A stretch of 64,000 bases of DNA, from assembly GCA_032871835.1 (NCBI GenBank), contig CM065296.1, positions 7,202,001-7,266,000 on the forward strand, given 5' to 3'. The DNA is from Dipteronia dyeriana. Its lineage: Eukaryota > Streptophyta > Magnoliopsida > Sapindales > Sapindaceae. The notes beneath the pieces were generated by a model. It made no database searches. It was not told where the DNA came from and saw only the letters and a list, made by a program, of their open reading frames with translations. This document shows, piece after piece, positions 6,536 to 53,530 of this stretch. Numbering within the stretch: position 1 is the first letter of the stretch; every line of letters begins with the position of its first letter. The position numbers and the translations under genes were made by a program.

Positions 6536-6730
6536 TTAAGAATAGAAAATCTTCAGATATTGGGCATTGTATGGTCGGGGTAAGACCCCTCCATTGGGTC
6601 GGGGTAAGACCCCTCCATTGGGTTGTCCAATCCAATATGCTCCATAACCAACTATTCCTTCAATTTTGTAAGGGCCTTCCCACTTATCAGCCAGGGAACC
6701 TGCAACTTTGTTTTTTGTATTCAATGACAC
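6536..6730 (-). pseudogene. Integrase C-terminal tail, Tat-like element
   Basis: The translation contains the conserved tail motif LADKWEGPYKIEG followed by YGAYWI, and ends with RPYNAQYLKIFY. It corresponds to the DNA-binding tail of Ty3/gypsy integrase. A 23-24 base tandem duplication (about 6572-6620) repeats PNGGVLPR in frame. About 290 bases separate it from the integrase core, with no clean frame between. Confidence 0.75.
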
Positions 6731-7023
6731 CTTTCTGAGTATCAGGTCTCCCAGTTGGAATTTTCTGACCCGAACATGGAATTGTAGTGGCGAGCTACTC
6801 TTTGTTGATACGTCATATTTCGTATTCGGGACTTCTCTTTTTTCTCTTATAGCTCATCTAGACTTTGTAACAGCATATCAACATTCTGATCTTCATTATA
6901 TAGCCTGACCCGGGGTGATGCATATGACGTTTCTATAGGGATAACAACTTCTGTTCCAAACGCTAAAGTGAATAGAGTCTCTCATGTTGAAGTTCTTGTT
7001 GTCATCTGATATGCCCATAATAC

Positions 7024-7701
7024 TTAGGGAAGCTTTTCAACCCAACTTCCTTTCTTGGCATCCAGCTTTGCTTTGAGTGTATGCTTGATGATTTTGTTTA
7101 CTGCTTCAGCCTGCCTGTTTGTTTGAGGATGGGCAGGTGTGGCATAGTAATTTGCAATTTGGTACTCCTTACACAGCTGTCTGAATTTCAGGTTATCGAA
7201 CTGGGTGCCGTTATCAGTGATGATAGTGTTTGGGACTCCAAACCTATAGAGTATATTCTTTTTCATGAAATTTATGGTATTTGTTTCTGTGATATGCACT
7301 AATGCTTCAGCTTCTGCCCACTTCGTGAAATAGTCAACGGTTACTATGGCATACTTCGCTCCACCCCCTGTCCCAGCTAACACTGGGACAATTAAATCCA
7401 AACCCCACATGGCAAACGGCCATGGGGATATGAGGTTTCTGAATTGTTCATGGGGTTGTCGGATATCATTAGCAATCCTTTGGCAAGTATTGCAACTCTC
7501 CGAACATCGATGTGCATCTGAGAATAAAGTTGGCCAATAATAACCTTGCCTGAGTACCTTGTGTGCCAAACCTTTGCCCCCTGTATGGCTTCGGCAAACT
7601 CCCCCGTGGATTTCTTGTAATATCCGACATGCATCTTCCTCTAACACACATATTTGAAGTGTTTGGGAAAACCCCATTCTGTATAGTTCTCCTCCGACCA
7701 A
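7024..7701 (-). pseudogene. Integrase core, Tat-like element
   Basis: The 225-residue frame has the zinc-binding H-H-C-C region (HGG..RSHTGG, then CNTCQR) and the catalytic core. The core acidic residues appear in LDLIVP, ITDNGTQF and QAEAVNK, fitting D, D, E of retroviral-type integrases. Integrase inserts the element's cDNA into host DNA in the nucleus. It continues the pol polyprotein after the second RNase H and ends at the window's break before the C-terminal tail. The fragment is a component of a broken polyprotein rather than a free-standing gene. Confidence 0.9.
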
Positions 7702-7716
7702 TGTGTACCTTGTTGA

Positions 7717-8286
7717 TCAATACATTATATGTTTTGCTTGTAAGGGATCTTCCGGGAGCATGCCTTCTTCCAGGAACCTTTTCAGCTGAGTCATCCAACA
7801 GTCTGACAGTGTTCGGATTTCTAAAATTTCAATTTTTTTTGGCTTAACTGTGCTCGGTTTAAAGAGATATGCTACCGGAATAGTTTTTGACCTGATCGTG
7901 GTTGTTGCTGATGCTAGTTTGGACAAAGCGTCTGCCTTTTCATTCTCCTCACTGGGGATCTGGGCAATCCTATATTCTTTAAATTTCTGGAGGAGCTGTT
8001 TTGTAATGTCACGATAGACTATCATGCCTTCATCTAGGACTTGGTTGACAACTACCTGTGAATCGCTAAATATCTCGACTTCATCTACCTCGAGATCTAT
8101 TCAGACTCTGAGTCCAGCTAGTAGCGCCTCATACTCGGCTTGATTATTGGTTGCTTTGAAGTCAAACCTCATGGCACATTCGACATCATCTCCTTCTGGA
8201 GTGCATACTATGATCCCTGCCCCGCTACCGTGAGTGTTCGAAGAGCCATCAACATATAATTTCCATGGGAAATTTTTACCCGACAT
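7717..8286 (-). pseudogene. Second (archaeal-type) RNase H, Tat-like element
   Basis: Two frames give one domain. 8101-8286 has KLYVDGSSNTHGSGAGI and NNQAEYEALLAGL, the first acidic residues of RNase H. 7717-8025 has EYRIAQIPSEENEKADALSKLA, the last acidic region. A stop near 8100 and a frame change part them. It lies between the ordinary gypsy RNase H and integrase. That position and the VDGSSN/NQAEYEAL signature fit the additional RNase H known from Tat-lineage elements. Its presumed job is degradation of the RNA strand in RNA:DNA hybrids. Confidence 0.8.
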
Positions 8287-8340
8287 CTTTTTTGCTTCCA
8301 GGTTTGGTTATGTGAACTCTGCTATAAAATCTGCCACTGA

Positions 8341-9668
8341 TTATAATTTGAGAGATGTCCTAGGGACATAGTGGATATCGAATTCACTTAGCTCGATTGC
8401 CCATTTGGTTAGTCTTCCTGAAATCTCTGGCTTCTGTAAAATTTGCTTCAATGGGCAGCCGGTGAGAACCTGGATTGTATAAGCCTGAAAGTATGGCATT
8501 AGCTTCCTTGCCACTGAAACCAATGCTAGGGCCATTTTTCTGCCTGTGAATACCTGGTCTTGGCTGGTAAAAGTGCTTTGCTGGTATAATACACTGGCTT
8601 CTGTACTCCATCTTCTGTTTTGACTAGGACTGAGCTTGCTGCTAGCTCTGTAATTGATAAGTATAAATGGAGTATCTCTCCCATTTATGGTTTCGAAAGG
8701 ATGAGAGTCTGCCCTAGGTACTATTTGATTTTTCAGAATGCCTTCTCGCACTCTTCGTTCCATTCAAGTCCTTTTCATTTTTTAATTACTCTGAAAAAAG
8801 GTACGCATCTGTCTGTGGCCTTTGAGATGAATCTACCCAAGGAAGCTAAACATCCTGTTAAGCGCTGTACTTCTTTTAGTGTCCTTGGTGAGGTCATTCT
8901 CTACAGGGCTTGGATCTTTTCAGGATTGACTTCGATTCCCCTTTGGTGAACTTGGAAATCCAGGAACCTTTCCAAAGGAACTCCGAATAAACACTTGTTC
9001 GGATTCAGCTTCATTTGGTATCTCTTCAAAACATCAAATGTCTCCCGCAGGTCTGAGGTATGCTTGTCTGCCGAGATGCTTTTAGTCAGCATGTCATCAA
9101 TGCATACTTCCATGTTTCTTCCTATTTGTCGTGCGAAGATTCTGTTGACCAGCTTTTGATATGTTGCCGCTGCATTTTTTAATCCGAATGACATTACTGT
9201 GTAACAGTACAAGCCCTGATCGATTGTGAACGCTGTTTTTTCTTCGTCAGCCTTGTTCATCCAGATTTGGTTATATCCTGAGTATGCGTCCATGAAACTA
9301 AGCAATTCATGGCCTGATGTAGCATCCACCAGTTGGTCTATCCTGGGGATTGGAAAACTGTCTTTTGGGCACGCTTTGTTCTAATCTTTTAAATCTACAC
9401 ACATTCTCCATTGTCCATTTTTCTTTTGGACGTGGACTACATTAGCTACCCATTGAGGGTAGTTGATCTCTCTAATCGACCCTACAACGAGTAGCTTCTC
9501 CACTTCCTGTTTGATTGCCTGACTTCTCTCGAGATTGAATGATCTTCTCTTTTGTATCACTGGTTTTGCATTCGGGTTTACTGCGAGATGGTGAGATATT
9601 ATTCGGGCATCTATCCCGACCATGTCTTCATGACTCCAGACGAACACATCCTTGTATTCTTTGAGCAT
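8341..9668 (-). pseudogene. Reverse transcriptase and RNase H, Tat-like element
   Basis: 9381-9668 holds the RT N-terminus (VIQKRRSFNLERSQAIKQEV, then QWRMCVDLKD). 8901-9329 holds FMDAYSGYNQIW and the active site, here CIDDM in place of the usual YVDD. 8341-8763 holds the gypsy RNase H end, with FTGRKMALALVSVARKLMPYF and LTKWAIELSEFDIHYVPR. A TAG at 9381-9383 interrupts the conserved D-L-N-K-A-C-P-K-D motif at the L. Further frame changes follow near 8900 and 8763. The enzyme copies element RNA to DNA; this copy is inactive. Confidence 0.9.
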
Positions 9669-13914: not shown

Positions 13915-14750
13915 GTTTCTTATATATCTGATAATATCAACTCTATACATGTACTAAATGGGACCAACTTTAAGGATTGGAAGGAGAACATTGAAATTGT
14001 TCTCGACTACATGGATCTTGACCTTGCACTTCGGGTTGAGCAACCCGCTTATCTTACGGATGCAAGTTCTCTTGATGACAGAAAGAACTTTGAGAAGTGA
14101 GATCGCTCAAATCGCATAAGTCTTATGATCATCAAGCGCAGCATTTCGGAGGCATTTAGGGGTGCGGTATCTGAAAAGATAACCAAAGCCAAGGAGTTCC
14201 TAGCCGAAATTGAAAAGCGTTTTGTAAAAAAAACGATAAGGCAGAAACAAGTACTCATTTACAAAGCTTGATTTCTATGAAGTACAAAGGCAAAGAGAAC
14301 ATTAGGGAGTACATTATGGAAATGTCTCATATTGCTTATAAGCTTAAGGCACTGAAGCTCGAGCTGTCTGATGATTTGCTCGTGCATTCGGTATTAATAT
14401 CACTTCCTGTACAATACAGCCCGTTTAAGGTCAGTTACAACTGTCAAAAGAAGAAATGGACTCTTAATGAGCTCATTTCTTACTGTGTGCAAGAGGAAGA
14501 GAGACTGAAGTGTGACAAGACTGAAAGTGCTCATTTGGCTAGCACCTCTAAGGATAAGGGCAAAAAGAGAAAGAATAATGAAGCTGCTAAGGGTCCATCA
14601 CAAAAGAAACAACAACAGGACAAAGAGGATTGTTTCTTTTACAACAAGCCTGGACATGTGAAGAAGGATTGTACCAAGTATCACACTTGGCGTGTAAAGA
14701 AAGGTATGTTCCTTACTTTGTTTTGTTCTGAGGTAAGCTTCAGTACCTAG
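13915..14750 (+). pseudogene. Gag, copia element (13-18 kb)
   Basis: The N-terminal part reads INSIHVLNGTNFKDWKENIE, typical of copia Gag. A TGA at 14098-14100 replaces an expected Trp codon (FEK-stop-DRSNR). The frame goes on through SEAFRGAV..EFLAEIEKRF and then 14268-14750. A zinc-knuckle-like CFFYNKPGHVKKDC has Tyr in place of the second Cys. Gag would package element RNA. The upstream frame from 13834 is translated GTTT repeat and probably not Gag. Confidence 0.85.
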
Positions 14751-14752
14751 AA

Positions 14753-15021
14753 ACACGTGGTGGTTAGATTCTGGTGCTACTACTCACATCAGTGTTTCTA
14801 TGCAGGGTTGCCTAAGCTATCGAAAGCCAATTGATGCTGAAAGAAACATCTTTATGGATGATGGCAAATCGGTAGAAGTGGAGGCGATAGGGCATTTTAG
14901 GTTGTTATTAGGAACTGGTTATTATTTGGATTTATCATATACTTTTGTTGTACCGTCTTGTAGACGGAATTTGGTTTCAGTTTCTTTATTGGACAAGTCT
15001 GGTTATTATTATTCATTTTGA
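14753..15021 (+). pseudogene. Protease region, copia element
   Basis: WWLDSGATTHIS (near 14758-14793) is the copia aspartic protease active site, in frame with 14800-15021. A TAG lies just upstream (about 14747) and a TGA at 15019, so it is cut off from gag and integrase. Confidence 0.85.
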
Positions 15022-16290
15022 AACAATCAATTCAGTTTATCTATAAATTCAAATGTTGTTGGAACTTGTTCTCTATATGTATATGACAACTTATATTTGC
15101 TTGATACAATCGTTTCTTATAATGAAACCTTGCATGTGGAATCACGAGGTACTAAACGCAAACTAAGCACAGAAAATTCGGCCACATTATGGCATAAACG
15201 CTTAGGTCACATCTCTAAAACTAGAGTTGAGCGGCTTGTGTCTGATAGGATTTTAGATTCCCTTGACTTTACAGACTTTGATGTTTGTATTGATTGCATC
15301 AAGGGAAAACATACCAAAATAAAGAAATTAGGAGCCAACAGAACTACAGAAGTCTTCAAATTGATACAAACGGATATCTGTGGTTCATTCCCTACTGCTT
15401 CTTGGAATGGCCAACGGTATTTTATATCATTCATAGACGATTACTCACGTTATGGGTACCTATTTCTCATTCATGAGAAATCACAGTCTTTGGACGTGTT
15501 CAAAACATTTAAAGCTGAAGTTGAGAACCAGCTCAAAAAAAGAATAAAGAGTGTCAGGTATGACCGTGGTGGTGAATACTACGGTAGATATGACGGTTCA
15601 GATGAACAACGTCTAGGACCATTTACTAAATTCCTAGAAGAATGTGGAATCGTCCCATATTACAGCATGCCAGGGTCACCTAGCATGAATGGTGTAGCTG
15701 AAAGGCGAAACTGGACTCTTAAGGATATGGTAAGGAGTATGATTTGTCATTCCACCTTACCAGAGTCACTCTGGGGAGAAGCACTCAAAACAGTAGCTTA
15801 TATTCTGAACCGAGTGCCAACTAAAGCAGCTGCAAAAACACCTTATGAGCTTTGGATAGACAGAAAGTTGTGTCTAAAGCATTTTCACATTTGGGGATGT
15901 CCAGCTGAGGCAAGGCCTTACAGGCCACATGAAAAGAAATTGGACTCCAAAACTGTGAGCAGCTACTTCATTGGCTACTCTGAACGATCAAGGAGCTATA
16001 AGTTTTATGATCTCACACTTAGGTCAATTTTTGAAACGGGAACTGCAACATATTTTGAAGATGTTGAGTTTGGGGGGAGAAATAAGGTTAGAGACATTGT
16101 CTGTGAGGAAGAATCGGTTTCGATTCCCACTATCGCTTTTGATAATGTGCAGGCTACTATACCTGTCATTGATCAAGAAGCGAATCTGGATCCTCAACCA
16201 GATAATGTTGAACAACCCCCCATTAAAGATGAGGTAATTGTTCCTGAGGAACAAACTCAACAACCTCAAGAACCAGTGTTATTAAGGTGA
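15022..16290 (+). pseudogene. Integrase, copia element
   Basis: The long open frame (15097-16290, 397 residues) has the zinc-binding HKRLGHIS and CIDCIKGK. The core acidic residues are in [16 protein letters not shown] and NGVAERRN. The C-terminal GKR-type region ([20 protein letters not shown]) follows. Its length and motif order suit copia integrase. The frame ends at a TGA before RT. Confidence 0.92.
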
Positions 16291-17963
16291 TCCACTAAAG
16301 AAATGAGAAATGCTATTCCGGATGATTTTTACGTATTTCTCCAGGAACATGATGGAAAGACATTGGAATGATGGAAAATGATCCAATCAACTTCCATCAA
16401 GCCATGCAAGGTTCCAACTCTCAAAAGTTGATTGATGCCATGAATGAGAAATATAAGTCTATGTAAGACAATAATGTTTAGGAACTTGTCTCATTACCAA
16501 AAGGTGCGAAGCCCATTGCTTGTAAATGGATATTTAAAACCAAAAGGGATTCGAAAGGTAATATAGAGAGGTATAAGGCTCGTCTTGTAGCTAAAAGCTT
16601 TACCCAAAAGGAAGATATTGACTATAAAGAGACTTTCTCTCCAGTTTCAACAAAAGACTCTTTTAGGACAATCATGGCACTTGTTGCACATTTTGACCAT
16701 GAGCTTCATCAGATGGATGTCAAGATGGCGTTTCTCAATGGTGACATTGAAGAAATAATTTATATGGTTCAATCGGAAAACTTTGAGTCGGGAGACCCAA
16801 AGAATATGATTTACAAATTGATAAAATCCATTTATGGACTCAAGCAAGCTTCCCGTCAGTGGTACCATAAGTTTCAACAAATGATTATCTCGTTTGGTTT
16901 TGAGATAAACGTTGTTGATAATTGTGTGTATCACAAAATCAGTGGGAGTAAGCACATATTCCTGGTTTAATATGTCGATGACATACTGCTTGCCAAAAAT
17001 GATATAGGCATGTTGCATGAAACCAAGAGATTTCTATCAAAGAATTATGAGATGAAAGATCGTGGTGACGCCTCTTTTGTATTAGGGATTCAGATACAAC
17101 GAGATCGCTCTCGGGGTATTCTTGGATTATCACAAAGGATCTATATCGATACAATGCTCAAAAGGTTTGGCATGTAGGACAGCAAACCAGGTGACACCCC
17201 TGTCGCTAAGGAAGACAAGTTTAGTCTCAATCAGTGCCCTAAAAGTAACCTTGAAGCTAAGGAAATGCAGAAGATTCCCTATGCATTAGCTGTAGGGAGT
17301 CTAATGTATGCTCAGGTGTGTACGCGTCCGAATATTACGTACATTGTTGGTATGTTAGGCAGATATTTAAGTTACCCTAGGATGGATCATTGGATAACAG
17401 CCAATCGAGTTATAAGGTATTTGAAGAGAACAAAAGATTACATGCTCACATATAGGAGATCGGATTAGTTTGAGATCATAGAGTATTCGGACTTCGATTA
17501 TGCTGGATGCCAAGATAGTAAGAGATCCACATCAAGCTACATATACTTGTTGGCTGGTGGAGCTATTTCTTGGAGGAGGGCCAAATAGACACTCATAGCT
17601 TCTTCTACCATGGAAGCAGAGTTTGTAGCATGTTATGTGGCATCCAACCATGGAATATGGCTGCAGAATTTTGTCACTGGGTTGCGCATTATGGAGGGTG
17701 TTGAAAGACCACTCAAACTATATTGTGATAATAAGTTAGTAGTGCTATATTCTAACAATAACAGGAGCTTATCTAGGTCAAAGAATATTGACATTTAAGT
17801 TCCTAGTTATGAAGGAAAGAGTGCAGAGTGAACATATATCCATAGAGCACAATAGGACAAACTCCATGATAGCGGATCCGCTTACAAAGGAATTACCACC
17901 CAAGGTCTTTCATGAGCACACTGCTCATATGGGTGTCATTTTGTGTGAGGATATCACATTTTA
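16291..17963 (+). pseudogene. Reverse transcriptase and RNase H, copia element
   Basis: Motifs in order: PIACKWIFKTKRDSKGN, LHQMDVKMAFLNGDIEE, SIYGLKQASRQWYHKF, then YVDDILLAKND. A TAA falls just before YVDD at about 16968. Further stops occur at 17176 and 17466. The RNase H end has SSTMEAEFVACYVASNH, LYCDNKLVV and ADPLTKELPPKVF, ending near 17963. It is dead because of the stops. Confidence 0.9.
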
Positions 17964-18393
17964 GTGGGAGTTTGTATAATTTTGTATTTTATTGCTCTAT
18001 ATTTGTTTTTGGATATACTTATGCATTTATGTATTTGGATATTTTCTGATCAGAAATAAAGTATTCGGTTAATTACACTCTGTTACATTGTGTTAAGTTT
18101 TGATCTCACTAAGGAATAAAGTAAGACCAATTGGAATAGACATATATAGATCACATTGCATGTAATTTCCAAGCTACGCATCCATGATTGATCTACGTCA
18201 TTTGGTTATGTTGGTATACGTGACCATTGATGGGTTTAGTCACGCTAAATGTGGCGAAAACCGCTTTGATCCTATGTCGGCATAATCAATGGACGAGATT
18301 GTTCGGATATACCCTAAAATTATGATAGCAAAATTTTGGAGCTTATAAAGTCATACACATTTGTAAAGTTACATATGTGGCCCAGTTGGAGAT
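17964..18393 (+). other. Copia 3' untranslated region and polypurine tract
   Basis: No ORF. Two purine-rich stretches occur, TAGTGGGAG just after RNase H and AGTTGGAGAT immediately before the 3' LTR; the second is at the position expected for plus-strand priming. Confidence 0.6.
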
Positions 18394-18644
18394 TGTTGAA
18401 AAATTCCATCATATGGGGCCACACATGTAAATATTAAATGTGTTGTGCTATCTTTTGGTTAAGTCTAAATTAAATTGATCTAATTAAGATTTAAAGTATT
18501 AAGGCTTAAGGGTATAATTGTCATGGAATTAATGTGTAGATACCATAGTGTTATTTCTAATTTGTTAAGGGGCCGAATTAGAAATAGCCAACATATAATA
18601 ATTTGATTATTATATATATTTAGGGTTATGGTCTCCAAATTACA
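18394..18644 (+). repeat. 3' LTR of the copia element
   Basis: The segment starts TGTTGAAAAATTCC and ends CCAAATTACA (TG...CA), 251 bases, preceded by a purine tract. CGATG follows (18645-18649). The uninterrupted Athila-like LTR has CGATG at the equivalent place (24094-24098), which fits a 5-bp target site. No partner LTR is in the window, so the ends are inferred. Confidence 0.7.
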
Positions 18645-19452
18645 CGATGTCAATTTTCATATGTATTTTGTATAAGTAGGGGACCTCTCCCCCCTAATTT
18701 ACACATTCTGAATCCAAATCTGATATTAGATTTGTGAAATTCTCTCTCTTTTGTTCTCAAATTCTCAGTTTAAATAAAATAGCTATTTTCTAGTTAAATT
18801 ATGTCTGGCTAATTTTATATAGCTGGGGCCAAAGGTGATACTGTTGGTATGAAAAATATGATCCAATTATGGTAAATTTATTATTTTTTTGCTTTCTCCC
18901 CTCTGATCTTTGTAGAGTTTTTGACTCACTATAGTCAGACAGATATTGTCTAGCACAGCGAGTACTCTTACCCATATTTATCAGAGAGTGGTTTCTCCCC
19001 TCTGATCTTTGTGGAGTTTTTGAGTCACTGTAGACAGACAGATGTTGTATAGCACAGTGGGTACTTTTACCCATATCTATTAGAGAGTGGTTTATCCCCT
19101 CTAATCTTTGTGGAGTTTTGACTCACTGTAGACAGACAGATGTTGTCAAGCACGGTGAGTACTTTTACCCATATCTATCAGAGAGTGATCAGTGGAGTAG
19201 AATACCCTCCCATTAATCTGGACTAGATATTAATTATTTGATCATATTCGAATTACCAACAGTGAATCCCTTAGCCCCAGTTTTAATTTTAATTAATTTA
19301 CATTTTATAACAAGCTTAGTAATTAATCTAGATTATTAATTCTACAAGGACAAATGAACAACCTCACTGTGGTTTGACCCGGTCTTACCGGTTAATTTAT
19401 TACTTTTACACTCTTATACATGAGAGTAGGAACACTTCTTTAGGACGTGTCA
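18645..19452 (+). repeat. Partial 5' LTR of the Athila-like element
   Basis: It matches 24094-24904 throughout and ends TAGGACGTGTCA. The first about 700 bases of the LTR, present at 23393-24093, are missing. The break coincides with the copia 3' LTR. Confidence 0.9.
18895..19190 (+). repeat. Three 99-base tandem repeats in the LTR
   Basis: Units starting TCTCCCCTCTGATCTTTGTG recur at 18895, 18994 and 19093. Each contains GACAGACAGAT and TTACCCATAT. The same three units occur in the other LTR near 24350-24640. Confidence 0.85.
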
Positions 19453-19476
19453 AGTTTTTGACGCCGCTGCCGGGGA
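19453..19476 (+). other. Primer-binding site of the Athila-like element
   Basis: TTTGACGCCGCTGCCGGGGA lies directly after the LTR. It is close to the TTGGCGCCGTTGCCGGGGA primer site common in plant Ty3/gypsy elements, and fixes a plus-strand orientation. Confidence 0.85.
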
Positions 19477-19889
19477 GGTAAGTCCACATTTTCTTTGTAC
19501 ATGTAATTTCTTTTTAATTTTATTTTAGTTTTGCTATTTTTTTCTATCTTTTTTTCTATCTTTTTTGTTCTTATTTTGTATTCAATTTTGCATCACTCAT
19601 CTCAATCATAAACTTTATCCACTTAAAAAAAAAAAACACTTGTAATCATTAATCACATTTTTACATTTTAGTCCTTCAACTTTTTATTTGCATTTTAGTT
19701 TAGATCTAGTTTGCATTTGCATATAGGTCATTTTATTTTTTATATTTGCATATCAGTCCCTGTAATTATCATATTTTCACTTTAGTCCCTATATTTATAA
19801 TTATTTACACTTTTGCCCTAAAATTTTGCATTTTCTTTTATTTCTTCATTTTTGTGTATTTCACCTCCATGAACCCTAATTAAATTTGC
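19477..19889 (+). other. AT-rich leader of the Athila-like element
   Basis: No ORF. T-rich leader between primer site and gag, with an A-run at about 19625. Confidence 0.5.
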
Positions 19890-20400
19890 ATGAGACGTTG
19901 GTCTCGAACATCTAGTGGTAGATTAATTAGGAGATCACAATCACCCCCATTCACTAACAACATGGCTGAAAACCCACTTAGACATCTAGCAGGAAACCAA
20001 GCCGAGAACCTTTTAGACAACCTTGACAACGTGTCTGAATACAACAACAATCAACCTTATGTTGACCATGACCAACACAGTAACCCAAATCCACCTAGAA
20101 CTCATAGAGACTACATGAACCCCACATGTACTGGAGCACCTTCATGCATTGCTTTCCCACCAAATGCAACACACTTTAATTTTAAACCGGGAATCATTCA
20201 ACTTTTACCCAATTTTCACGGTCTTGAATCTGAAAACCCATATTTGCATCTTAGGGAGTTTGAGGAAGTTTGAGGAAGTCTGCACACTTGCACTGACCAA
20301 AATGTTAGCATGGATATAATCAGGCTTAAGCTTTTCCCTTTTTCCTTAAAAGATAAAGCTAAAACTTGGTTACAAAAAGACTCTTAGAAAATACAGATTT
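19890..20400 (+). pseudogene. Gag N-terminal fragment, Athila-like element
   Basis: The frame 19890-20273 includes THRDYMNPTCTGAPSCIAFP and FKPGIIQLLPNFHGLESENP, the conserved start of Athila/Tat-type Gag. After a stop at 20271 caused by a short duplicated GAGTTTGAGGAAGT, the next frame continues with SMDIIRLKLFPFSLKDKAK and TWLQK, then ends near 20385. The rest of Gag and all of Pol are absent. Confidence 0.85.
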
Positions 20401-20716
20401 TCAAAAAGACGTTGCCGTCCTTTTTGACCCTTGTTACAAAGGTGAGTAAACAAATCTTTTGCTTTTGACTTTATTTGTGTTTGCAATTATTATTTTTGTT
20501 TTTGTTCGCTTTTACGTTTTGAATTTTTATAAGATTAATTTCTAGGTTCAGTTTTTGCTTGGTGTGTTTTGCTATATAACCTCAGTTAAGTAGCGGATAA
20601 CGGTACTCCATGACAATTTAAGTCGGTTTAATTTAGTTTCCCAAATAACTGATCCCCAAAACAAGACATGGACGAAATTTTCACAAACCTGTGAAAAAAA
20701 ATTCCATCGTTGCCCT
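20401..20716. other. Non-coding stretch inside the Athila-like element
   Basis: T-rich sequence beginning AAAGGTGAGTAAAC, with no ORF. It resembles the T-rich spacers of the element's own 3' part more than coding sequence. The GTGAGT could serve as a splice donor. Confidence 0.4.
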
Positions 20717-20724
20717 AAAATGCT

Positions 20725-21219
20725 TTGAAAAAGATTTACAAAGCTCGTTGCGAAAGATTACGCTTACTGATGATAAACAAGATTCCTGTTGAAATTCGCT
20801 GGTTGATCGAAACTAAGGTACGTCTAGCAAGTGAGTCTGCTGATTCATTTATATCTTACATGCCTGGTTTTGGAAAAAGTAACCTTGTAAAAAAACGAAG
20901 AGCTAAGAAGTTAGGGGTTACTTGTCACAAATGTGCACGTACAACTTGCAACACACATTGTCGTTCTTTAGGAATGGTGTCTAATAATCGGGAAGATAAA
21001 ATTTTATTCATTAGGCATGGTTTGCGTAGGGAGTCATTGGATAATATCCTAACGACTCTTGATGCACATCCTAATGGATATGTGCAAATGGTAATTGACC
21101 GATTATGGTCACAATTTCAAAAAGAACATGCACAATATAGTCTTGGGAATCTGACTTTAAAAGACCATGTTTGCCGATTTATAAGAAAATTGGATGGGAA
21201 GCATATCCCCGACCCATAG
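20725..21219 (+). CDS. Unrecognised Cys-rich ORF inside the Athila-like element
   Basis: The open frame runs from a stop at 20716 to TAG at 21217 (about 164 codons; the first ATG is near 20770). I do not recognise the family. It has a basic stretch (KKRRAKK) followed by CHKCARTTCNTHC, a C-x2-C-x4-C-x3-C pattern that could bind zinc. A hydrophilic, probably helical region then ends in LDGKHIP. It matches no Gag or Pol domain I know. It has no internal stop and lies about 200 bases before the LOG-like sequence on the same strand. It may be a captured host exon or an element-specific protein. Confidence 0.45.
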   Translation: MKKIYKARCERLRLLMINKIPVEIRWLIETKVRLASESADSFISYMPGFGKSNLVKKRRAKKLGVTCHKCARTTCNTHCRSLGMVSNNREDKILFIRHGLRRESLDNILTTLDAHPNGYVQMVIDRLWSQFQKEHAQYSLGNLTLKDHVCRFIRKLDGKHIPDP

Positions 21220-21414
21220 AGGATGTTGAAGCCATTTCTAAACGTCAAACCATATGAAGATGTGAGTCACAATCAGCACTACCAGTAAATATCCTTTTTT
21301 TATGATCTTTTTCCTTCCGCATTTAATGTCTTTTGTAATTATTGTTGTTTACTTTTGATTTTTGAACCATTTGGATCTAATATCATTGACAAATTTGTCG
21401 CCCTATACATATAG
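21220..21414. other. Spacer between the Cys-rich ORF and the LOG-like sequence
   Basis: T-rich with no ORF. It ends CATATAG just before the open LOG-like frame, which could be a splice acceptor. Confidence 0.35.
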
Positions 21415-22175
21415 GTGTATCATTGTGTTACCTTTTCGGGGATCTATAAATACAAGCATTTCTTTTCCTTTTTGCTTCAAGCACTTATAAACATTCAAAA
21501 GAAAATTTCAGAGAGTGCATTAATAGTGTCACCTTCAACTAAACGATTCGCAAACATTTGTGTGTTTGGTGGCACCAATTATGGGAAATACAGAGAGTTT
21601 GTTGATGCTACAACTCATCTTTGTAAGGTTTTGGCTGAGCAAAAAATACACCTAGTGTATGGAGGAGGTAACTTGGGATTAATGGGGTGTGTTTCACGAG
21701 CTACACGAGACAGAGGTAGACAAGTTCTGGGTATTGTCCCAAAACCTATGGCCGCAACATACATCATCGGAAAGACAAACGGCGAAGAGCTAATTGTTTC
21801 AGGTATGCCTGAAAGATTGATTGCTATGTTACATCATGCCGATGCGTTTATAGCTTTGCCAGGTGGTTTTGGAACCTTAGAAGAAATATTTACAATGGCA
21901 TCCTGGCGCAACTACACATCCATGAGAAACCCATCGGTTTGTTGAATGTTAATAAATTTTATGATGGTTTGCTTTCATTTCTTGATCATGCTCAGAAAAA
22001 TTATTACATTCCACATTCAATCCGAAAAATCTTTATCTCTGCTTCAAGTCCTCATGAGCTGATTGACCAGTTACAAGCTTTTAATTATGAGTCAAATCTC
22101 TCAACCTCCAAAATAGATTGGTCCATTGATGAAGAGAACAAGAAACGCAGAATTGATCTGAATCTCAGTTTGTGA
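21415..22175 (+). pseudogene. LOG-like cytokinin riboside 5'-monophosphate phosphoribohydrolase, frameshifted
   Basis: LOG enzymes release active cytokinin bases from their riboside monophosphates. Conserved blocks appear in order: ANICVFGGTNYGKY, HLVYGGGNLGLMG, VLGIVPKPM, GMPERLIAMLHHADAFIALP, then PGGFGTLEE, which matches the family motif PGGxGTxxE. One missing base near 21907 shifts the frame at the W-A-Q-L position. The second frame (21939-22175) supplies LLNVNKFYDGLLSFLDHA and the C-terminus to a TGA. There is no in-frame ATG ahead of the core; the frame opens after TAG at 21412. No introns interrupt the core, whereas typical plant LOG genes have several. It lies in sense between Athila-like LTRs. 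The family call is firm; the subfamily is not. Confidence 0.85.
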
Positions 22176-23392
22176 TTGTCCCATGGTTTTTATGCATTTT
22201 ATTTTCCTTTATTTTGTATTTCTTTTGTTGTTTTACAGGATTTTGTTGTCTTTCAAGTTATTCAGGTGATATCTTCTAAACCTTAACTTTTTCTAAATAC
22301 ATTGGGGACAATGTCTCGTTCTGGTTGAGGGAAGGAATAGTTGATTCAATAACTTTTGATTTTCAAAAAAAAAAACTTACTTCTGACTATTTTTTTTTAT
22401 AAATATGGCCTAGTAAAGAGATCTTTTAGATACTTCTGAGATGCATCTTTGTTGTTATGATGCATTTTTTTCCTCTCTTCTGACTATTCAAATTTATAAA
22501 CTCTTCATTGTAATATCATTGACTAATCCTTTTGTTCATTAAGTCATCTTGAAAAAAAAATTGAACTATTCTGGACACACACGCACATTGACACGTGATT
22601 ATGTGCAGTAAGTTGAGATTTTTCGATATTTAGTTCTGAAACATCATTCAAAGGTAACAACCGAAGGTAGTGGTCTTGTTTAAAAAAATATATAGTAATA
22701 ATAATAATAATAATTTTGTGTGTTGTGACCAAAACTGTTACTTAGTAGCCGGGCATCATGCCTCAATAAGCATAGAGTGTTCGCGTAAAACGGTGGAGTC
22801 TGGATAAGAATAAAGTGCAGTTTTGTAGCTTATTTAACTCGAGCAATTAATTCTGATGGGTGCTTCAACACTTAATGCCCTAAGACCAACTGGTTTGGGA
22901 GTCATTGACCCAAAGCTCGTTACACGGGTTAAAGAGAAAGCTTAGGGGAATTGTACTATTAAAAAAAACATCTGCAATCCGAGTAATTAAGCCTGTAGAA
23001 GTGTTTTAACACTTAATGCCCTAAAGCCAGCTGGATTGGGAGTCATTGTCCTAAAGCTCGCTACATGGATTAAAGATGGAATGCTTGTTTCCAATTTTGT
23101 TATATTAAAAAAAAAACAAAAAATAAATAAATAAAACTAATGTCTAAGGAAGAAGCCCTGATGAGATTTCGGAATGAAAATGTTGCTTGATTTCAATTGA
23201 ATCTCATAGTTATTGTGTTGATCTTTATTAAGCACAAGAAAGTTTGATTGATAACTCAATTGATGACTGGTTGTCAAAGGGTGATAAAAGAGGTATGGGA
23301 GAGTTTGTCTATTTGGTAGTTTAGAGATTTGAATTTGAGTTTTTACTATTTTCGCTTTAGTTGCTAGGGGCTAGCAATAAGCTGGTTGGGGG
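22176..23392 (+). other. 3' internal region of the Athila-like element
   Basis: No ORF. CATTGGGGACAATG at about 22300 and two diverged copies of a block of about 130 bases with CTTAATGCCCTAA..CCA.CTGG.TTGGGAGTCATTG (22860-22940 and 23005-23085) are usual in this part of such elements. The tract CTGGTTGGGGG at 23382-23392 is the likely plus-strand primer. A short (ATA)n run is at about 22695. Confidence 0.7.
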
Positions 23393-24904
23393 TGTGATTA
23401 ACACTGAAAATTGTATGTTTACTAAGGGATAATATCATCATTTTACACTTCCAATATAATTAATTCCCTAATTTAGACATAATTTCGTTCGCTCGCTTAA
23501 ATAAATGTGTTGTGTAGTAATCAGTGTATTTTTCTTTGTATTCGAGAGGTAATTCGATCAATTCAGAATTATGGAGAAGTCAGATGGTAAAACAAACATC
23601 GTTTTCAAGTTTAGGACGTCAAAAACCTTAGGAAGGTCACGAAGGGCATTTTTATAATTTTGACTATTCACTGTTTCACTGTTGACTTTTCACTGTTCAC
23701 AATTGACTTTCACTGTTCACAATTGACTTTCACTGTTCACAATTGACTTTCACTGTTCACAGTTGACTTTCATTGTTCCTGATGACGTGGCACATTACTA
23801 TCGGACCAAACTGTGAGTGCACCGTACACGCGGCTGCAGAGAATCACATTCTAGAAGTCGGTGCACTGTTCATAGTTGACTTTCTAGAAGATTATTGACC
23901 GATGACGTGACACAATTCTATTGGCCCGAGTTGTGAGTGCATCGTACACATGCTGCAGATAATCATATTATAGAAGCCGGTGCACTATTCACTATTGACT
24001 TTCAAGGATGCGTTTACTGTTCACTGTCACTGTTCATTATTCACTATTCACCGATGACGTGGCGAAATCGGGACGCTCCATTCTAAATTCATTCGATGGT
24101 CAATTTTCATCCGTATTTTGTATAAATAGGGGACCTCTCCTCCCCTAATTTACACATTCTGAATCCAAATCTGATATTAGACTTGTGAAATTCTCTCTCT
24201 TTTGTTCTCAAATTCTCAGTTTAAATAAAATAGTTATTTTCTAGTTAAATTATGTCTGACTAATTTTATATAACTGGGGCCAAAGGTGATACTTTTGGTA
24301 TGGAAAATATGATACAATTATGGTAAGTTTATTATTTTTTTGCTTTATCTCCTCTGATCTTTGTGGAGTTTTTAACTCACTATAGTCAGACAGATATTGT
24401 CTAGCACAGTGAGTACTCTTACCCATATTTATCAGAGCGTGGTTTTTCCCTTCTGATCTTTGTGGAGTTTTTGACTCACTGTAGACAGACAGATGTTGTC
24501 TAGCACATTGGGTACTTTTACCCACATCTATCAGATAGTGGTTTATCCCCTTTGATCTTTGTGGAGTTTTAACTCATTGTAGACAGACAGATGTTGTCTA
24601 ACACGGTGAGTACTTTTACCCATATCTATCAGAGAGTGGTCAGTGGAGTGTAATACCCTTCCATTAATATGGACTAAATATTAATTATTTGATCATATTC
24701 AAATTACCAACAGTGGATCCCTTAGCCCCAGTTTTAATTTTAATTGATTTACATTTTATAACAAGCTTAGTAATTAATCTAGATTATTAATTCTACAAGG
24801 ACAAGTGAACAACATCCCTATGGTTCGACCCTGGTCTTACCGATTAATTTATTACTTTGACACTCTTATAATTGGGAGTAGGAACACTTCTTTAGGACGT
24901 GTCA
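23393..24904 (+). repeat. 3' LTR of the Athila-like element
   Basis: This is 1512 bases from TGTGATTAACACTG to GGACGTGTCA (TG...CA), preceded by a purine tract. The last 810 bases match the partial 5' LTR. Confidence 0.85.
23660..24055 (+). repeat. CACTGTTCAC..TTGACTTT repeats in LTR U3
   Basis: Four or five adjacent copies of a unit of about 23 bases (CACTGTTCACAATTGACTTT) lie at 23680-23775, and looser copies continue to 24055. ATGACGTGGC with an ACGT core recurs at 23782, 23900 and 24053. This lies where an LTR promoter would carry enhancer repeats. Confidence 0.75.
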
Positions 24905-50500: not shown

Positions 50501-51465
50501 ATTTTTTTTTCAAAAACCCTTCAACTGCTGGAATTCAAATTCTAGCCATGACGTCAGCCAACGGCTGGAATTTGAATTCCAGCCGTTGGATAAAAAAAAA
50601 ATTACAAAACCCCTCAGAAATCTTTTAAATTACATTTTGATCCACAAATCAATTTTTTTTATAAATACTTCCATCCATTTCATTTTCCATTCACTCTCTC
50701 TATCATTCTTTCAATCTCTCATTCTCTCAAATCTCAATCTCTAATATATTCTCCAATTCTCTAAACTTTTTCATTCAATTTAGTTATTATTCTCTCTACA
50801 AAATTCTCTACATTTTCCACCAACACACCAAATTTTAAAGGTACAATTTTGTTATTACTTTTGCTCAAACATATTCTCATAGTAAATTTATATGTTTATG
50901 TTTAGATTTTAGTTACTTAATGAAAACATTTTTATTTAGTTAGTTAGTTTATCAATTTTTGGGTTTTAATGTTAATATTATTTGTTTAGTATATTAAGAT
51001 TTTTAAGTTTAGTAGTAATTTTAATATTTGTTATTAGTAAATTTATAAAGTTAATTTGTATTACTGAATTTAGTTTTTGTAATAAGTAAATGATGAATGT
51101 TAAGTGTAGTAATTACGTTTGATATTGTTTTTTTTCATAAATTATGAATTTATAGTGTAGTTGTTTATTTTAATATTTTTGGTGAGTATGTTATGAATTT
51201 AAAGTGTAGTAGTGAATTTAAAATTTTTTGTTAGTAGATTATGTTAGTAAATTTAAGAGTAGTGGTTCAATTCATCAATTTTATGTTAGTATATTATGTT
51301 AGTAAATTTATCAATTTTATTTGTAGTAGTGAATTTAATATTTTTTGTTAGTAGATTATGATTTTTTTGTTTATTTAATTTGTTTTTGAAGTAAATTAAT
51401 TATTGTAAGTGTCGTATTATTTATAGTAATTATTGTTAGTAAATTAAGATTACTGTTAGTAAATA
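50501..51465 (+). other. hAT 5' non-coding region
   Basis: Contains a perfect inverted pair around GGAATTTGAATTCCAGCC (about 50525-50585), then CT-rich and TTAGTAAATTTA-type repeats (50940-51460). ACTTCAG just ahead of the ATG at 51502 could be an intron end. Confidence 0.5.
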
Positions 51466-51501
51466 TTGATTTTTAATTTGACTATTAACTTACTTCAGAA
51501 A

Positions 51502-53530
51502 ATGGATCCTAACCAGCAACCTTATTTTCCGGACGATTTGAATATGCTCAACGATGAATTTGATATTTCAGAGCCGACCCATACTCAAGTGAGACCTTCT
51601 GGTTCCGGCATTACACCAATATCACGTCCTAGAAAATTAACATCAGATGTGTGGCAATGTTTCAACATAGTCCAAATGACACTCCCAAACGGGACGTCTG
51701 ACCCAAAAGCTAAATGTAAGTTTTGTCATAAGGATTATGCTACAAGTACGAGGGAAACCGGACATTTGAGACGGCATATGCACAAATGTATTCCTGCACA
51801 TGGACAGGTAGACACTACACCCAGACAAAATTTCAACGGCACCCAGACGGGTCCGTTACGACTTGACAGTTTGACGTCATGCACGCTAAAGAGTGATTGG
51901 CATGATACATTACATAAACTGATCAACCGATCAGTATTGGTGAGAGTTCATTTTATAAAGAATTAATCACATCTGCATATAACCCCCAATTTGAACCTGT
52001 TTCTAGAACCACCACTAGAAATGATTTGATACGATTATTTGAAACCCAAAGGGATGACTTAGTTGTTGAAATAACACATTTAATTGTCTCTGTTGCATTA
52101 ACTTCTGATATTTGGAATGCATGTTCCAAACAGGACTATTTATGTGTCACGGAAAACTATTTAGATTCTGACTGGAGGATAACAAAAAGAATTTTTGGTT
52201 TTCGTCCCATGGATTTTGCATATATCGCAGAAAATATTTTTAATGTCATAATGGAAGTTTTAAAACTTATGAAATCACGCATTGCATCCTTTCGATCACA
52301 TTTGATAATGCATATGTAAATACTAGCTCTATTGCATTGTTTGTTGCAAGAAATATCCCGCAAGATGGAGGTTATTTCTTCCATCAACGGTATGCATGCC
52401 ATATTATAAATTTAGTTGTACATGCTGGTTTAAAACAGGTAAGCGACCAAATAGATCGCATCAGAGATGCCATTTCTTGGATTTGCAGTTCTAATCCTAG
52501 ATTCAGTGAATTCAAGAGACATTGTAAATTAAACGGTCTCAAACCCCGACGATTCCAAACTGATATGCCGGTAATGTGGAACTCTACTTATTTAATGTTG
52601 AAAAATTATTTGGAATATGATACAATCTTTACATGTTTTTATAACATGAAATTGGCCGAAACAGGTCAACATAGTCCAAAAATACTTACCACAGACAATT
52701 GATATGTGGCAAAGATTTTTGTTCAATTTTTAAAGATTTTTTACAATGCCACTGTAACTCTTTCCAGGGTATATTACCCCATATCTTCCCAGACAATCCA
52801 TTATATAGTGGAAATATCTGAACTGTTAAACAGTTATAGAGAAGATGAACATCTAGGCGCTGCAGTTGTTGCCATGGAGACAAAGTTGAAAAAATATTGG
52901 GCTAACATTCCTCTACTTTATGTCTTAAGTGCTATAGTAGATCCTTGGGTTAAATTATCTGGTTTAGAAGTTTTGCTTGAGTTTATTGCTATTAATTTGT
53001 CAATAGATTATTCAGAACAAATTACTGACATTCAAACCAAGTTGTTCGAGATTTTTCGTATTTATGAGAGCAGGTTTGACAACATTGACACCCCCCAATC
53101 AACACAACCGGAGACAGAGCCGAAGCAAACAAGTTGGAGCCTTCTGAAACGCTGAAAAAAGTACAAATCTGCAAGTACTTCTTCAGGGTAAAGATCTAGC
53201 CCATCTTTTTGTACCGAACTTATTAGGTATCTTGAAGCACAATTCAATGTTGTTGAAGACAAGGAAGAGTTTGATTTGTTGTTATAGTGGAAGACCTATA
53301 TGTACAGGTATCTAGTTCTGTCACACTTAGCACGTGACATACTGGTTATTCCAGTGTCAACGGTGTCTTCAGAACAAGCTTTCAGCACCAGTGGATGCAT
53401 AATTGAACCAAGAAAAAACTGTTTGTCTCCAGAGATGGTGGAGGTACTAACATGCCTTCGGGATTGAGAACATGCTAAAAAAAGGTTGCAAAATCTAACT
53501 GTAGATAAAGAACTTATTCTAAATTTCGAC
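51502..53530 (+). pseudogene. hAT transposase, BED finger to dimerisation domain
   Basis: The ATG at 51502 opens MDPNQQPYFPDDLNM. A BED zinc finger follows: VWQCFNIVQ, CKFCHKDY and HLRRHMHKC. Catalytic-domain blocks are ALTSDIWNACSKQDYLCVTE (52100-52160), ACHIINLVVHAGL, MPVMWNSTYLMLKNYLEYD and KYWANIPLLYVLSAIVDPW. The dimerisation domain has IPVSTVSSEQAFSTSGCI and LSPEMVEVLTCLRD. Frameshifts near 51960, 52320 and 53150 and stops at 52700 and 53467 break it. The order and spacing match plant Ac-type transposases. Inactive in this copy. Confidence 0.92.

What the first reader, a model, noticed from the sequence alone, without database searches (positions are those of the whole stretch)
19453..23392. 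LOG-like phosphoribohydrolase occupies the pol position of an Athila-like LTR element
Seen: an Athila-like LTR pair, primer site, gag start and polypurine tract surround a sense-oriented LOG-like sequence with the PGGxGTxxE motif and no introns in its core; no retroviral enzyme is present. Known: LOG enzymes activate cytokinins, and plant retroelements sometimes carry host gene pieces. Inferred: a retrotransposon picked up a (possibly spliced) cytokinin-activation gene. One missing base and no upstream ATG say this copy is dead, but other copies might not be.
Basis: partly seen in the sequence, partly recalled or inferred. Interest (0 to 1): 0.82.

Follow-up and report, generated by a model that had tools for sequence, protein, structure and literature searches.

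The report
Plant retroelement with virus-hormone gene pair
This is a dead copy of a plant jumping gene whose relatives, found in several flowering-plant families, carry two extra genes side by side: one resembling a plant-virus nucleic-acid-binding protein and one resembling the plant enzyme that activates the growth hormone cytokinin.

Summary
The LTR element is real (5' LTR partial), and a sense-oriented, intronless LOG-like sequence lies inside it; this copy is dead. Directly upstream of LOG, at 20668-21219, lies a gene like the nucleic-acid-binding / cysteine-rich proteins (NABP/CRP) of carlaviruses. LOG is not in the pol position: pol is missing here, and in gene models of other plants the order is RT-IN-NABP-LOG, in 45 of the 47 models holding at least two of these modules. 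The pair thus sits in the 3', env-like position. NABP and LOG occur together in 30 of 98 models from a search built to favour fusions: 21 from Citrus, 9 from Acer, Rhamnella, Orobanche, Primulina and Henckelia, so in rosids and asterids. 57 of 74 long LOG hits end in a tail with an LxLxL motif (recalled as an EAR motif), which a structure model shows as disordered. LOG in Gypsy elements of Citrus and Populus is already in print (PMC9289625). My searches found no report of the NABP partner or the pair. A host-manipulation role is inference. No other DNA copy could be examined: the own-genome search did not complete.

The parts
18645..19452 (+). 5' LTR, partial (last ~808 nt)
   Evidence: 93.5% identical to 24094-24904
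19459..19476 (+). primer binding site, tRNA-Asp type
   Evidence: 16 of 18 bases of the recalled tRNA-Asp 3' end; best site in the window
19890..20380 (+). start of a gag-like frame, cut off and broken
   Evidence: ORF 19884-20273; Athila-like gag by recalled wording; no Pfam gag match
20668..21219 (+). carlavirus-like NABP/CRP gene, two in-frame stops
   Evidence: aligned end to end with P0023, 64.5%, E 1.6e-74; 347 homologues; relatives match Carla_C4 and Viral_NABP; stops
21444..21452 (+). TATA-like CTATAAATA about 80 nt before the LOG start site
   Evidence: only + strand occurrence of CTATAAATA in the window; TATAAATA occurs 9 times on +; function untested
21523..22175 (+). LOG-like gene, intronless, start codon lost, one frameshift
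22140..22172 (+). C-terminal basic stretch plus LxLxL tail of LOG (KKRRIDLNLSL)
   Evidence: translation; same kind of tail in 57 of 74 LOG hits of 205 aa or more
23384..23394 (+). polypurine-tract-like G-rich run
   Evidence: read from sequence
23395..24904 (+). 3' LTR
   Evidence: start read by eye

Best explanation
The locus is a pol-deleted, dead copy of an Athila-like Ty3/gypsy element. Its lineage carries a two-gene cassette between integrase and the 3' LTR: a carlavirus-type NABP/CRP followed by an intronless LOG (cytokinin riboside 5'-monophosphate phosphoribohydrolase). Shown: the anatomy of this copy, the identity of both genes by profile and sequence, and the order IN-NABP-LOG in gene models of other plants. 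Inferred: LOG came from a spliced host mRNA; NABP is shared with plant RNA viruses, direction unknown; the models reflect intact elements. Inferred mechanism: NABP suppresses RNA silencing or acts on transcription, as related viral CRPs are reported to do; LOG raises active cytokinin and so cell division; the LOG tail may dock to a nuclear co-repressor. Together they would help the element to be expressed and inherited. My odds: about 0.9 for the anatomy and the gene-carrying family, about 0.35 for host manipulation as the function.
Against: Window NABP itself stays below both Pfam cut-offs (17.7 against 20.9 bits, 16.1 against 23). The NABP model is poor (pLDDT 69.3, pTM 0.35), and structure searches gave nothing significant. 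Gene models may join neighbouring elements; 21 of the 30 with both genes are Citrus; two order exceptions, P0241 and P0275. With one pair per lineage NABP and LOG distances correlate only moderately (r 0.46, 1643 of 40320 permutations). The Acer/Xanthoceras branch lacks the tail. No DNA of other copies, no dN/dS, no expression data. Nothing here tests function.
Confidence: 0.72

Rival explanations
1. Passenger capture: an ancestral element picked up a LOG cDNA and an NABP sequence by accident and they are carried along without a role.
For: This copy is broken in both genes; no functional data; correlation between the two genes is moderate when one pair per lineage is used.
Against: Both genes stay open over their length in many hits (84 of the 120 NABP hits listed end at the same family end; 74 of the 120 LOG hits are 205 aa or longer), between plants whose copies differ by 32-46% (NABP) and 41-63% (LOG) from the window; the tail is kept.
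Confidence: 0.25
2. The NABP-like gene is not of viral origin: RNA viruses took it from elements or host, or the likeness is limited to a basic stretch and zinc finger.
For: The profile match covers mainly the basic stretch and zinc finger (34-68 of 91 in the window copy); no significant fold match; no viral NABP sequences were at hand for a tree.
Against: Two separate viral profiles match many members; among the 14 non-significant viral structure matches the first is the silencing suppressor of Fig latent virus 1 and the fourth an NABP.
Confidence: 0.3
3. Two unrelated partial LTR insertions around a native LOG gene (the refuter named by the first reader).
For: The 5' LTR is partial and no target-site duplication can be tested.
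Against: PBS directly after the 5' LTR and a G-rich tract directly before the 3' LTR; NABP and LOG follow integrase in other genomes; LOG is intronless.
Confidence: 0.03

Closest known systems
Gypsy LTR elements with a YgdH/LOG domain in Citrus and Populus (PMC9289625, section 12 read; it credits Steinbauerova et al. 2011, not held)
   Same: LOG-family domain in plant Ty3/gypsy elements; Citrus and Populus are also hosts of hits here.
   Different: The passages seen name no NABP partner ('Carla' and 'nucleic acid binding' 0 occurrences in the main text; its supplements were not seen), no gene order and no tail; hosts here also include asterids.
Phalaenopsis Gypsy elements with an AlkB-type RNA demethylase (PMC9289625, abstract and section 12)
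   Same: Plant Gypsy element with an acquired enzyme gene proposed to act on the host.
   Different: One gene, one orchid genus, another enzyme.
Athila elements with 3' env-like extra ORFs (passages of PMC11728184, and PMC6317226)
   Same: Extra ORF between pol and the 3' LTR; tRNA-Asp-type PBS (recalled for Athila).
   Different: Cargo here is NABP and LOG; Athila ORF-1 (PF03078) was not among the Pfam matches seen.
NABP/CRP of carla-, allexi- and mandariviruses (PMC12172455, abstract, introduction, one section)
   Same: Basic stretch before a zinc finger; profile matches to Carla_C4 and Viral_NABP.
   Different: Here encoded by an LTR element, next to LOG.

Membership tests
LTR retrotransposon | matched LTRs with PBS and PPT inside | tested here: met
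   5' LTR partial
LTR retrotransposon | target-site duplication | not testable with these tools
   5' end of the element is missing
Athila clade of Ty3/gypsy | RT/IN phylogeny | not tested
   no pol in this copy; no labelled reference set was at hand
Athila clade of Ty3/gypsy | no second RNase H (its presence marks the Tat clade, PMC6317226) | tested here: inconclusive
   P0256, P0289, P0293, P0294 show RT, some with RT_RNaseH, without another RNase H at E up to 0.01, but the gene models are incomplete
Athila clade of Ty3/gypsy | tRNA-Asp PBS (recalled) | tested here: met
   16 of 18 bases
LOG (cytokinin riboside 5'-monophosphate phosphoribohydrolase) | PGGxGTxxE motif and fold | tested here: met
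   motif in the window's N piece; Pfam; fold of relative P0127
LOG (cytokinin riboside 5'-monophosphate phosphoribohydrolase) | enzyme activity | not testable with these tools
   needs an assay of an intact relative
viral NABP/CRP | profile match above curated cut-off | tested here: inconclusive
   window copy below; several relatives above, e.g. P0245, P0264, P0297
viral NABP/CRP | basic stretch followed by zinc finger | tested here: met
   arrangement in viral CRPs: PMC12172455 section 5
viral NABP/CRP | silencing suppression or transcription-factor activity | not testable with these tools
   needs a leaf assay

The most novel reading that the evidence does not exclude
A eudicot lineage of endogenous retrovirus-like elements carries a host-manipulation cassette: a silencing-suppressor or transcription-factor gene shared with RNA viruses, joined to a hormone-activating LOG whose conserved tail (basic stretch plus LxLxL) recruits a nuclear co-repressor of the TOPLESS type. 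The element would push cells towards division and lowered silencing so that new insertions reach the germ line.
Probability: 0.3. Interest if true: 0.92.

Novelty: new variant of a known kind. Interest (0 to 1): 0.76.

Why it matters
Extra ORFs in plant Gypsy elements are often described as lacking known domains (PMC9289625, passage). Here two identifiable genes form a recurring pair in rosids and asterids: one shared with RNA viruses that use it in pathogenicity, one of a family that activates a growth hormone. This makes it testable whether a plant retroelement acts on silencing and hormone state, and in which direction genes moved between RNA viruses and LTR elements. It also warns annotators: LOGs with this tail carry the name LOGL10 in Populus.

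Tried and rejected
Own-genome search for further DNA copies: 15 identical requests to the genome search did not complete, machine busy. So copy number, TSDs and dN/dS could not be tested. Scans of viral contigs with LOG, NABP and alignment A1 gave no relative.

Shared contig lengths (4511, 1558) between NABP and LOG hits were considered as evidence of linkage; a few coincidences are expected by chance among two lists of 120, so this is a hint only. The pair P0023/P0137 rests on it. Splice-donor-like GGTAAGT (19477) and GGTGAGT (20441) were considered for a spliced mRNA; the motif occurs 12 times on the + strand of the window, so two in about 4 kb is not clearly above chance. Foldseek of the NABP model against viral and solved structures gave nothing with E up to 0.001.

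Paper searches: NABP in retroelements or plant genomes; LOG in LTR elements; extra ORFs; CRP function. Searches returned no paper at all, so their profile-name terms may simply not occur in the library. Only open-licence main texts were searched; supplements were not seen.

Full report
The element. The finding's coordinates hold the internal part of an LTR element. The 3' LTR reads as 23395-24904. The 5' LTR is present only as its last ~808 nt, 18645-19452, 93.5% identical, K2P 0.065. At recalled rates of 2.5e-9 to 1.3e-8 per site and year that is about 13 to 2.5 million years. A tRNA-Asp-type primer site follows the 5' LTR, 16 of 18 bases, the next best site in the window having 5 mismatches. 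A G-rich tract abuts the 3' LTR. The LTRs hold tandem units spaced 98-99 nt.

What is inside. Between primer site and G-rich tract lie a cut-off gag-like start, an NABP-like gene and a LOG-like gene. Sixteen proteins of relatives, most with pol parts, were aligned to the window: pol parts match only another Gypsy element at about 6.6-9.6 kb on the minus strand. So this copy has lost pol. The gag assignment rests on recalled wording; Pfam gave no gag match.

The overlooked gene. 20668-21219 reads as 183 codons with two in-frame stops and aligns end to end with P0023 at 64.5%. Its open part (166 aa) has 347 homologues at E up to 1, of which 120 were listed, the best 73% identical; named hosts in the list are Xanthoceras, Acer, Populus and Rhamnella. 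In alignment A1, 20 of 24 members match Carla_C4 (best E 2e-07) and 17 of 24 Viral_NABP (best E 1.1e-08) at E up to 0.01. The window copy stays below both cut-offs (E 0.0036 and 0.011). The family has a basic stretch (KKRRAKRL) followed by C-x2-C-x4-C-x3-C, the four cysteines at 90% or more in 58 sequences. This is the order of NLS and zinc finger described for viral CRPs (PMC12172455, section 5). That paper's introduction reports silencing suppression by CRPs, and transcription-factor activity with hyperplasia for the chrysanthemum virus B protein. A structure model of relative P0001 is poor; of 14 viral structure matches none is significant, and there is none in solved structures.

Position and pairing. 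A search with the stretch from NABP into LOG returned 98 proteins. Scanned with profiles of both families and with RT and IN probes, 30 hold NABP and LOG: 22 these two alone, 7 with IN, 1 with RT and IN. A further 13 hold NABP with IN (8 with RT) and 4 LOG with IN (1 with RT); 45 hold only LOG, 6 only NABP. Of the 47 with two or more modules, 45 follow RT-IN-NABP-LOG. Exceptions: P0241 (an extra LOG piece in front) and P0275 (NABP before an integrase). The 30 are not a frequency, as the search was built to favour fusions, and gene models can join neighbouring elements. By name 21 of the 30 are Citrus (changshan-huyou, sinensis); the other 9 are Acer yangbiense (2), Orobanche gracilis, minor and hederae (4), Rhamnella rubrinervis, Primulina tabacum and Henckelia pumila. 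Domain positions agree, for example P0290 with IN 248-340, NABP 551-585, LOG 602-662.

Evolution. In a tree of 46 chosen rows, 37 LOGs of this kind, from rosids and asterids, form one branch (90/93) apart from two Arabidopsis LOGs and a fern LOG (95/91). Only these three plant host LOGs were at hand, not every one of the 37 is shown to lie in an element, and some rows have long branches. NABP and LOG distances correlate, r 0.72 over 18 elements, 0 of 2000 permutations, but many are Citrus copies. With one pair per lineage, 8 in all, r is 0.46 and 1643 of 40320 permutations reach it. Co-inheritance is supported moderately.

The tail. Of 74 LOG hits of 205 aa or more, 57 have LxLxL within the last 12 residues. 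Of the 90 new proteins, 16 have it within the last 14, among them Citrus and Orobanche copies. The window's frame ends KKRRIDLNLSL. In the model the last 15 residues are below pLDDT 50, and the match to At2g37210 ends before them. Rows of the Acer/Xanthoceras branch end before the motif. LxLxL is recalled as the EAR motif that binds TOPLESS-type co-repressors; no call here tests binding.

Most likely mechanism. An autonomous relative would make gag-pol and, from its 3' end, two accessory proteins. NABP would blunt silencing or alter transcription; LOG would raise active cytokinin; both could favour dividing cells and expression of the element. This is inference. How the two are expressed is open: a TATA-like CTATAAATA lies about 80 nt before the LOG start site.

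Known or new. LOG (YgdH) in Gypsy elements of Citrus, and of Populus with a looser filter, is in print (PMC9289625, section 12), with credit to a 2011 paper that is not held. Its main text has no 'Carla' or 'nucleic acid binding'; its supplements were not seen. My searches listed no paper on a carlavirus-type NABP in an LTR element. Passages of PMC3136472 report a flexivirus replicase-like sequence in cucumber, which is different. I rate this a new variant of a known kind.

Noticed in passing
21220-21285: After the NABP stop the window keeps, in frame, a stretch (read by eye) like one that five other proteins have fused to NABP (P0051, P0242, P0259, P0266, P0270), while 84 of 120 NABP hits end at the stop. 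Possible stop read-through or an older, longer NABP.
   Followed up: partly
P0146, P0182, P0212 (Populus): LOGs with the LxLxL tail are named 'probable LOGL10', a host cytokinin gene, in Populus trichocarpa and P. nigra; whether these lie in elements was not tested.
   Followed up: no
19477-19483 and 20441-20447: Splice-donor-like GGTAAGT just after the PBS and GGTGAGT before NABP; 12 such motifs on the + strand of the window.
   Followed up: partly
14214-17970: Ty1/copia-like ORFs (by eye) run up to the cut 5' LTR; the unique stretch 17400-18644 has no second copy in the window, so the origin of the cut is unexplained.
   Followed up: no
about 6600-9600, minus strand: Another Ty3/gypsy element with RT and integrase (Pfam RVT_1, rve).
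   Followed up: no
51463-53155: ORFs that look by eye like a BED zinc finger and hAT transposase; no profile search was run.
   Followed up: no
23660-24063: 3' LTR holds short repeats of TTTCACTGTTCACAATTGAC, 20-nt units.
   Followed up: no
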